NCBI GenBank assembly: GCA_012719655.1
Contig: JAAXZZ010000141.1
Coordinates: 1-44,720 of the forward strand
Reading direction: 5' to 3'
DNA from: Gammaproteobacteria bacterium
GTDB lineage: Bacteria; Pseudomonadota; Gammaproteobacteria; Pseudomonadales; Pseudomonadaceae
Length of the DNA stretch: 44,720 nt
Numbering within the stretch: position 1 is the stretch's first letter; every line of letters begins with the position of its first letter. A model generated the notes under the pieces. That model ran no database searches. It saw only the letters and a list, made by a program, of their open reading frames with translations, and was not told the DNA's origin. The translations under genes and the position numbers were made by a program. Shown piece after piece: positions 10,281-30,580 of this stretch.

Positions 10281-10381
10281 TCGTACATCTTTTTTGAAGT
10301 ACGGCGTATGATTTTTTGCCTTGCAAGGAATGCCCTCTCGATGCGTAGCGTTCACTCGAATGCAACATCACTGCTCATTGA

Positions 10382-10479
10382 GCAGCGTGTGGGTGACCTG
10401 GCAAGCGTAGTCATGGATGACGCAGCGCCCGAATCGAGACAGGATGTCTCGTGAGGGGTAAACGTCATTCACACACTGC
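10382..10479 (+). repeat. Structured repeat element, copy A (98 nt)
   Basis: Outer arms GCAGCGTGTGGGTGAC / GTCATTCACACACTGC; hairpin GTCA-TGGA-TGAC; hairpin CGAGAC-AGGAT-GTCTCG. Confidence 0.85.
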
Positions 10480-10527
10480 GACATGCACATAGACATCTAA
10501 ACACTTTGCTTTAGATCTGCACGTAAC

Positions 10528-10626
10528 GTACTTCGGGGTAAGTGTTAATCCGTCGATGAACCCATCCAGGGTTCAACTCCGGCGTTCGCCATCCCTGGCT
10601 CACTCACCACACCCACCCCGAAGTAC
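10528..10626 (-). repeat. Structured repeat element, copy D (99 nt, inverted relative to the others)
   Basis: Perfect 12-bp arms GTACTTCGGGGT / ACCCCGAAGTAC; on the minus strand, hairpins GCCA-GGGA-TGGC and GAACCC-TGGAT-GGGTTC. Confidence 0.85.
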
Positions 10627-10730
10627 TCGTTGACCATTTACAGGGCTTGCACTATTGCAGCCTGAATAACTTGCATAGATGTTTAATGATCTAATCATTT
10701 TAAAAAGCCGTACTCCATATTGCCAAACAA

Positions 10731-10947
10731 CATCACTGACCAACGAGTATCTTGTTGCTGTCGCGACCAGCGCAGCCAGGGATGGCGCAGCCTCGAATCG
10801 GGTCAGGATGACCCGCTGAGAGAAAAGCGATAGCAACAAGGTACGGCATGCGCATATCGCTCTGGATACTCTACAATATTAAAGACACTCAGCCTATGCA
10901 TTGGACTGAGACTCTATCGCCGGCATGGCCAGCTCATACAGGGTTCA
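10731..10947 (+). repeat. Tandem direct repeat unit 1 (contains element B)
   Basis: CATCACTGACCAACGAGTATCTTGTTGCTGTCGC ... CAGCTCATACAGGGTTC is repeated about 221 bp downstream with scattered substitutions. Confidence 0.9.
10747..10844 (+). repeat. Structured repeat element, copy B (98 nt)
   Basis: Arms GTATCTTGTTGCTGTCGC / GCGATAGCAACAAGGTAC; hairpins GCCA-GGGA-TGGC and CGGGTC-AGGAT-GACCCG. Confidence 0.88.
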
Positions 10948-10950
10948 AAC

Positions 10951-11168
10951 ACATCACTGATCAATGAGTATCTTGTTGCTGTCGCGACCAGCGGAGCCAA
11001 GGATGGCGCAGCCTCGAATCGGGTCAGGATGACCCGTTGAGAGAAAAGCGACAGCAACAAGGTACGGCATGCGCATATCGCTCTGGATACTCTGCAATGT
11101 TAAAGACACTCAGCCTATGCATCGGATTAAAACGCAGTCGCTGGCATGGCCAGCTCATACAGGGTTCG
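10951..11168 (+). repeat. Tandem direct repeat unit 2 (contains element C)
   Basis: Near-copy of 10731..10947. Confidence 0.9.
10968..11065 (+). repeat. Structured repeat element, copy C (98 nt)
   Basis: Arms GTATCTTGTTGCTGTCGC / GCGACAGCAACAAGGTAC; hairpins GCCA-AGGA-TGGC and CGGGTC-AGGAT-GACCCG. Confidence 0.88.
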
Positions 11169-11199
11169 AAGCTCTGGTTGATCATGTGCAGGGTTTGTA

Positions 11200-30413: not shown

Positions 30414-30430
30414 GCGGGCCAGCGGCCCGC
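30414..30430. repeat. REP-like GC-rich palindrome
   Basis: GCGGGCC-AGC-GGCCCGC perfect 7-bp stem with a 3-nt loop; reverse strand reads GGGAGCGCGGGCCGCTGGCCCGC. Confidence 0.5.
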
Positions 30431-30481
30431 GCTCCCAGAAGGACACATGTACATTTAATCAACACTACTAATGATCAACAA

Positions 30482-30580
30482 GCACTGCGCTGTATCTGTG
30501 ACAAGCGCAGCCATGGATAGCGCAGCGCCCGAATCGAGACAGGATGTCTCGTTGAGGGAATAACAGTTACAGCGCAGTGC
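30482..30580 (+). repeat. Structured repeat element, copy E (99 nt), remote from A-D
   Basis: Arms GCACTGCGCTGTATCTGT / ACAGTTACAGCGCAGTGC; loop TGGA in AGCCATGGATAGC; hairpin CGAGAC-AGGAT-GTCTCG. Confidence 0.87.

What the first reader, a model, noticed from the sequence alone, without database searches (positions are those of the whole stretch)
10382..11065. A family of 98-99 nt structured repeats with a three-stem architecture, four copies in one intergenic region
Seen directly: copies A (10382-10479, +), D (10528-10626, -), B (10747-10844, +) and C (10968-11065, +), plus distant copy E (30482-30580, +), share one layout. It runs: conserved prefix close to TGATCAACGA, left outer arm, short hairpin with loop TGGA/GGGA/AGGA, 12-13 nt spacer, 6-bp hairpin with loop AGGAT or TGGAT, AG-rich linker, right outer arm, conserved suffix close to GGCATGCGCAT. 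The length is 98 or 99 nt in all five despite large sequence differences (D shares little primary sequence with A or E). A fixed length and structure with drifting sequence suggests the folded form is what is maintained. I could not check whether the family is already catalogued as a REP/MITE-like repeat or Rfam entry.
Basis: seen in the sequence. Interest (0 to 1): 0.9.

Follow-up and report, generated by a model that had tools for sequence, protein, structure and literature searches.

The report
Folded RNA-like repeats between genes
In the bacterial genus Denitrificimonas (relatives of Pseudomonas), a roughly 98-base sequence that folds into a three-armed RNA-like shape is scattered in dozens to at least 149 copies between genes; it resembles a known but poorly understood RNA motif thought to soak up the global regulator CsrA/RsmA, so it may be a genome-wide set of docking sites for that regulator.

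Summary
The window holds exactly five copies (10382-10479 +, 10528-10626 -, 10747-10844 +, 10968-11065 +, 30482-30580 +). They belong to a family confined, as far as searched, to Denitrificimonas: about 71 copies in this genome and 12 to at least 149 in each of 11 other genomes of the genus. Each copy is a three-way junction: an 18-bp outer stem with drifting sequence, hairpin 1 with loop ANGGAU, and hairpin 2 with loop NGGAN. Both hairpins carry tandem G/A internal loops. Covariation is significant, and all six significant pairs fall in the proposed structure. The folding is strand-specific (G·U 256 versus A·C 21). Two subtypes, I and II, alternate in inverted pairs, mostly between convergent genes. 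Rfam does not detect the family. A core model built only from these elements recovers Rfam TwoAYGGAY (RF01731) elements in other Pseudomonadaceae, which also reach 69-110 copies per genome. I read the family as a divergent, amplified TwoAYGGAY-like RNA repeat. The likeliest mechanism is binding of CsrA/RsmA dimers by the paired GGA loops when transcribed; this is inferred, not shown. It is not a RAYT-driven REP, a conserved-end MITE, or an attC site. New variant of a known kind.

The parts
10382..10479 (+). Copy A, type I three-way-junction element (flanked unit 10368-10492)
   Evidence: R1 116.6 bits; fold; ortholog in D. caeni 97% identical
10528..10626 (-). Copy D, type II element, inverted relative to A (flanked unit 10515-10640)
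   Evidence: R1 95.6 bits although not in training set; fold -56.2 kcal/mol
10747..10844 (+). Copy B, type I element
   Evidence: R1 136.4 bits
10968..11065 (+). Copy C, type I element, tandem duplicate of B
   Evidence: R1 142.8 bits; 220-bp duplication 10730-10949 / 10951-11170 at 92%; single copy in D. caeni
30482..30580 (+). Copy E, solitary type I element between a LysR gene and a dihydrouridine synthase gene (convergent)
   Evidence: R1 130.4 bits; neighbours; present in D. caeni, absent at the same place in G006, G008 and G011
10368..10381 (+). Conserved 5' flank box of copy A (family consensus CNATGATCAAYGA, preceded by GCAAACAAC)
   Evidence: Flank conservation over 83 D. caeni elements
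11066..11078 (+). Conserved 3' flank box of copy C (GGCATGCGCATAT)
10730..11170 (+). Two 220-bp tandem repeat units holding B and C

Best explanation
These are copies of a divergent, genus-specific relative of the TwoAYGGAY structured RNA, amplified as an intergenic repeat. SHOWN: each copy folds, on one strand only, into a three-way junction. Its long outer stem is free to change sequence. Its two hairpins carry tandem G/A internal loops and GGA in the apical loop. Type I and type II copies sit in inverted pairs, mostly between convergent genes. INFERRED: read-through or local transcription yields an RNA in which the stem clamps the two GGA hairpins about 27 nt apart. A CsrA/RsmA dimer can then bind both. 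The copies would act together as dispersed CsrA/RsmA binding sites (a sponge and/or 3'-end stability or processing elements). Copy number changes by tandem duplication and deletion between like copies. Dispersal to new sites happened in the past by an unknown route.
For: Copy number and restriction to the genus. Structure: 21 of 33 pairs with double changes, 0 of 500 shuffles as high for covariation score; core across both types 99.4% paired; six significant pairs, all in the structure. Strand specificity: G·U 256 versus A·C 21 in the outer stem (p about 1e-52 taken as a sign test). The given strand folds better in 154 of 159 elements, by 9.9 kcal/mol on average with RNA parameters, but only 3.4 with DNA parameters. 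GGA: loop 1 is A-N-GGA-U with N free, and loop 2 is N-GGA-N; GGA is about 97% conserved in each where the hairpin was called. Loop 1 in its C-G closing pair equals CANGGANG, the Rsm recognition motif. Link to TwoAYGGAY: model R2, made only from these elements, lands on the Rfam TwoAYGGAY core in 23 of the 30 RF01731 loci fetched, near full-length. A published analysis proposes TwoAYGGAY as CsrA-binding and notes its tandem GAs (PMC4333381). CsrA is encoded in 12 of 12 genomes. Maintenance: all 19 element sites with orthologous flanks in hand are also occupied in D. caeni. Ortholog changes favour G·U over A·C 16 to 5.
Against: No expression or binding data exist here. Loop 2 is a pentaloop, not the AYGGAY hexaloop. 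RF01731 itself gives no hit to these elements. In tandem gene contexts type I is more often antisense than sense (about 8 versus 3, read), so there is no general coupling to the upstream gene. No promoter was evident. The convergent-gene bias is also what harmless repeats show (PMC2718517). Perfectly paired variants of the internal loop (L115, L108) point to template-switch correction at the DNA level, which can mimic part of the covariation.
Confidence: 0.5

Rival explanations
1. They are non-autonomous mobile DNA (MITE/REPIN-like). The one-strand hairpin is the single-stranded DNA substrate of a transposase or other recombinase, and the conserved loops and flank boxes are its recognition points.
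For: High copy number, genus restriction, inverted pairs and arrays like BIMEs, conserved flank boxes outside the stem. One-strand folding is also expected for ssDNA substrates; DNA parameters also favour the given strand, 151 of 159.
Against: Outer arms (would-be terminal repeats) are not conserved in sequence. The genus's RAYT genes are flanked by their own classical REPs and have no 98-nt element nearby; Y1_Tnp is missing from G004, which has at least 149 copies. All 19 testable sites are shared between two species, so recent transposition is not evident. The strand preference is three times larger with RNA than with DNA energies.
Confidence: 0.25
2. They are REP/BIME-like 3'-end elements. 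The stable hairpins stop or attenuate transcription or protect mRNA 3' ends between convergent genes, with no CsrA role.
For: 21 of 34 element-bearing gaps are convergent versus 13.6% of all gaps of 120 bp or more; divergent gaps are depleted. Folding energies around -45 to -56 kcal/mol.
Against: No T-run after the stem, and no terminator found at the elements. It does not explain conservation of GGA with free neighbours in both loops, the tandem G/A loops, or the conserved flanks. The same placement bias is described for unrelated repeats in P. fluorescens (PMC2718517).
Confidence: 0.15
3. Structure is a by-product. Long imperfect palindromes are kept paired by DNA template-switch correction, not by selection on a folded molecule.
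For: Single copies with the internal loop turned into perfect pairing (L115:2061-2185, L108:3208-3333).
Against: Correction would leave G·U and A·C mismatches equally often; observed 256 to 21, and 16 to 5 between orthologs. It does not conserve unpaired GGA loops and tandem G/A loops.
Confidence: 0.05

Closest known systems
TwoAYGGAY RNA motif, Rfam RF01731 (Weinberg et al. 2010, PMC2864571; CsrA-binding proposal in PMC4333381)
   Same: Closing stem plus two adjacent hairpins with GGA-bearing loops, poorly conserved outer stem, tandem GA in a stem, gammaproteobacterial. In Pseudomonadaceae also multi-copy (69-110 per genome in two genomes) and at times in inverted pairs. R2 finds its core.
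   Different: These elements are not detected by RF01731 in any of the 12 genomes. Loop 1 is ANGGAU with N any of A/U/G, and loop 2 is NGGAN rather than AYGGAY. Two coexisting subtypes form regular inverted pairs with genus-specific flank boxes.
CsrA/RsmA-sequestering sRNAs (RsmX/Y/Z, CsrB/C)
   Same: GGA in hairpin loops; loop 1 matches the Rsm CANGGANG consensus; sites occur in pairs.
   Different: One defined junction with only two sites, repeated about 100 times across the genome rather than one sRNA gene with many sites. Expression unknown.
REP/BIME/REPIN with RAYT
   Same: High copy, intergenic, alternating orientation, one-strand hairpins.
   Different: 98 nt three-way junction rather than a 20-40 nt palindrome, no RAYT linkage; classical REPs exist separately in the same genomes.
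P. fluorescens intergenic repeat families R0, R2, R26, R178, R200 (Silby et al. 2009, PMC2718517)
   Same: Multi-copy intergenic repeats of 89-352 bp, several with stem-loops, and tail-to-tail placement.
   Different: Sequences not available to compare here. Some could be TwoAYGGAY-bearing composites; this was not tested.

Membership tests
TwoAYGGAY (RF01731) | Scores at or above the Rfam gathering score (43 bits) | tested here: not met
   No hit at gathering in the window, none at E up to 10 in the array region or in three other loci, none in 12 Denitrificimonas genomes
TwoAYGGAY (RF01731) | Two hairpins side by side inside a closing stem | tested here: met
TwoAYGGAY (RF01731) | AYGGAY in both terminal loops | tested here: not met
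   Loop 1 ANGGAU with Y at N in only about 38%; loop 2 pentaloop NGGAN. GGA itself is conserved in both
TwoAYGGAY (RF01731) | Tandem GA in a stem (PMC4333381) | tested here: met
   G64A65/G87A88 and G40-A42/G55-A57 (positions of alignment A3); the next pair of the loop changes A-U to G-C between types I and II
TwoAYGGAY (RF01731) | Detectable homology of the core to Rfam members | tested here: met
   R2 near full-length on the core of 23 of 30 RF01731 loci, and reciprocal finding of RF01731-scoring loci by R2
CsrA/RsmA-binding RNA | GGA in the loops of at least two hairpins at workable spacing | tested here: met
   about 27 nt between GGAs
CsrA/RsmA-binding RNA | Cognate CsrA/RsmA in the genome | tested here: met
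   PF02599 in 12 of 12 genomes; intact sequence
CsrA/RsmA-binding RNA | Transcribed and bound by CsrA/RsmA | not testable with these tools
   No transcript or binding data
REP/BIME with RAYT | 20-40 nt palindrome mobilised by a linked RAYT | tested here: not met
REP/BIME with RAYT | Alternating-orientation arrays | tested here: met
MITE | Terminal inverted repeats conserved in sequence | tested here: not met
   Outer arms vary while pairing is kept
MITE | Target-site duplication at clean empty sites | tested here: inconclusive
   Empty sites exist (G006, G008, G011 at the Dus gene) but flanks are too diverged to place ends
Integron attC site | RYYYAAC / GTTRRRY core sites at the ends of the fold | tested here: not met
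   Flank consensus TGATCAAYGAG and CGGCATGCGCA

The most novel reading that the evidence does not exclude
The genus uses a distributed CsrA/RsmA sponge: about a hundred genome-scattered copies of a two-site GGA junction, mostly transcribed from 3' ends of genes, titrate CsrA in proportion to global transcription, in place of or beside a central RsmX/Y/Z sRNA.
Probability: 0.2. Interest if true: 0.85.

Novelty: new variant of a known kind. Interest (0 to 1): 0.55.

Why it matters
TwoAYGGAY has, to my knowledge, had no tested function since it was described in 2010. These data show that in Pseudomonadaceae it, and this unrecognised relative, behave as high-copy, strand-specific folded repeats with two conserved GGA loops. 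That makes the CsrA/RsmA-sponge idea testable at hundreds of natural loci, for example in the culturable type strain D. caeni DSM 24390. It also links two subjects usually kept apart: intergenic repeats and global post-transcriptional regulation.

Tried and rejected
RAYT mobilisation: rejected, because the genus's RAYTs have their own REPs and no 98-nt elements nearby.

Classical MITE with conserved ends: disfavoured, because arms drift.

attC: rejected on flank consensus.

Phage or plasmid origin: no hit in viral contigs, plasmids or phages.

Rfam catalogued family: no hit.

RsmZ search in the genus: no hit, but the control genomes contain no Pseudomonas, so absence cannot be read.

Verifying that clan CL00106 (to which Rfam assigns TwoAYGGAY) is the CsrA clan through E. 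coli csrB failed, probably because the wrong stretch was fetched; the argument does not rest on it.

Gene context of Pseudomonas TwoAYGGAY loci by ORF length was unreliable in GC-rich DNA and is not used.

Literature searches for the loop sequences gave only unrelated papers.

Full report
OBSERVATION. Copy D was not used to build that model. Alignment and folding confirm the layout: an 18-bp outer stem, hairpin 1 with loop NGGA between GCCA and TGGC, a short linker, hairpin 2 with loop AGGAT or TGGAT, and conserved flanks. Two refinements apply. B and C sit in a 220-bp tandem duplication, and D. caeni has a single copy there. D is a second subtype.

EXTENT. The window is contig C113 of a 2.70-Mb genome in 249 contigs. 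The model finds about 71 strong copies there. All 11 other genomes of the genus searched carry 12 to more than 60; with a fuller scoring of five of them, counts were 149 (G004, where the scoring limit was 150), 117, 55, 13 and 12. None of the 24 genomes of other genera of the family has one; one order-level genome has three weak matches. An exact-core pattern over the named genome collection gives 47 stretches, all Denitrificimonas caeni DSM 24390 or unnamed gammaproteobacterial/Pseudomonadaceae MAGs. There were no matches in viral contigs, plasmids or phages. G009 is D. caeni DSM 24390: its contig lengths equal those of NZ_ATXQ01.

STRUCTURE IS WHAT IS KEPT. On 30 type I copies, 95.7% of pair cells are standard pairs, 21 of 33 pairs show changes on both sides, and the covariation score exceeds all 500 shuffles and all slid controls. 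The inner core over both types is 99.4% paired. A test in the style of R-scape, with substitutions re-thrown on a FastTree tree, gives six pairs at E of 0.05 or less; all six are in the structure and none is outside. In the outer stem, G·U cells number 256 and A·C cells 21. A DNA palindrome without strand preference would give equal numbers. The given strand folds better than its complement in 154 of 159 elements, by 9.9 kcal/mol on average with RNA energies and 3.4 with DNA energies. Between G000 and D. caeni orthologs, single-side changes are 16 G·U, 5 A·C and 5 other mismatches, with 4 double changes. The selected form is therefore one strand, more likely RNA than single-stranded DNA; the last step is inference.

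CONSERVED UNPAIRED FEATURES. Loop 1 is A-N-GGA-U with N about equally A, U or G; loop 2 is N-GGA-N. GGA is conserved in about 97% of the copies in which the hairpin was called. The C-ANGGAU-G loop equals the Rsm recognition consensus CANGGANG (established knowledge). Both hairpins hold tandem G/A motifs. In hairpin 2 the internal loop is GAAU/UUGA in type I and GAGU/UCGA in type II, so the pair after the tandem GA covaries.

ARRANGEMENT. Type I and type II elements face each other with their 3' ends, 22-43 nt apart between flanked units in D. caeni and often exactly 34, and repeat in arrays. Both types share a 5' box (GCAAACAAC...TGATCAAYGAG) and a 3' box (CGGCATGCGCA). In 1.56 Mb of D. caeni, 21 of 34 element-bearing gaps lie between convergent genes, against 67 of 492 gaps of 120 bp or more (Fisher p about 8e-12), and divergent gaps are depleted. 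The gene calls are simple ORF calls. All 19 own-genome sites whose orthologous flank was in hand are occupied in D. caeni too. At the Dus gene the element is missing in G006, G008 and G011.

WHAT IT IS RELATED TO. Rfam finds nothing in the window, and at E up to 10 nothing relevant. A 63-nt core model, R2, built only from Denitrificimonas elements gives weak hits in Pseudomonas-type genomes of other genera. Most of those sequences are three-way junctions scored by Rfam as TwoAYGGAY at 34-44 bits, around the 43-bit threshold. RF01731 itself hits 156 of 248 Pseudomonadaceae genomes in 14 of 19 genera but none of the 12 Denitrificimonas genomes. R2 in turn lands near full-length on the RF01731 core of 23 of the 30 loci fetched that way. 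RF01731 copies reach 69 and 110 in two genomes and include inverted pairs, within composite repeats of about 300-430 bp. So this family replaces, or is the local form of, a family-wide class of repeats. A published motif analysis notes two tandem GAs in TwoAYGGAY and proposes that it binds CsrA (PMC4333381).

MECHANISM. Shown: fold, strand, GGA loops, tandem G/A loops, placement, presence of CsrA in all 12 genomes. Inferred: transcription, CsrA/RsmA binding by the two GGA loops of one element, and a titration or 3'-end role. The rivals are given with their evidence; ssDNA mobility is the strongest. The genus's RAYT is an unlikely driver: it carries its own classical REPs, has no 98-nt elements nearby, and Y1_Tnp is missing from the genome with the most copies. 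Template-switch correction of palindromes does occur (perfectly paired variants at L115 and L108) but cannot give the G·U over A·C bias.

VERDICT. A real, well-supported family, new to Rfam, and a new variant of the TwoAYGGAY kind. It is not filed as an RF01731 member, because two defining tests (score, AYGGAY in both loops) were not met.

Noticed in passing
window 30414-30437: A classical REP-like palindrome (GCGGGCCAGCGGCCCGCGCTCCCA) 45-70 bp upstream of copy E; the same motif flanks the RAYT genes of this genus (L087, L089).
   Followed up: partly
window 10922-10943 and 11143-11164: A second repeat, GGCATGGCCAGCTCATACAGGG, sits between the elements. Its complement recurs next to other element arrays in D. 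caeni and near the Dus gene of G004 (L146).
   Followed up: no
L115:2061-2185 and L108:3208-3333: Element copies whose tandem G/A internal loop has become perfectly paired by copying one arm, a sign of template-switch mutation.
   Followed up: partly
L129:3129-3234: An element that has lost hairpin 1 cleanly but keeps the outer stem and hairpin 2: a natural one-site mutant.
   Followed up: no
D. caeni contig C1, first 200 kb (L159-L168): No elements at all, against many in C4, C5, C7 and C8: a repeat desert.
   Followed up: no
G098 (69 copies) and G258 (110 copies), loci L281-L334: Rfam TwoAYGGAY is a high-copy repeat in other Pseudomonadaceae, embedded in composite repeats of about 300-430 bp and found at contig ends; RF01731 is typed in Rfam as cis-regulatory.
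   Followed up: partly
L239 (G000:C217) and the second CsrA hit G000:C55: G000, G004 and G007 encode two CsrA paralogs; the other nine genomes gave one.
   Followed up: no
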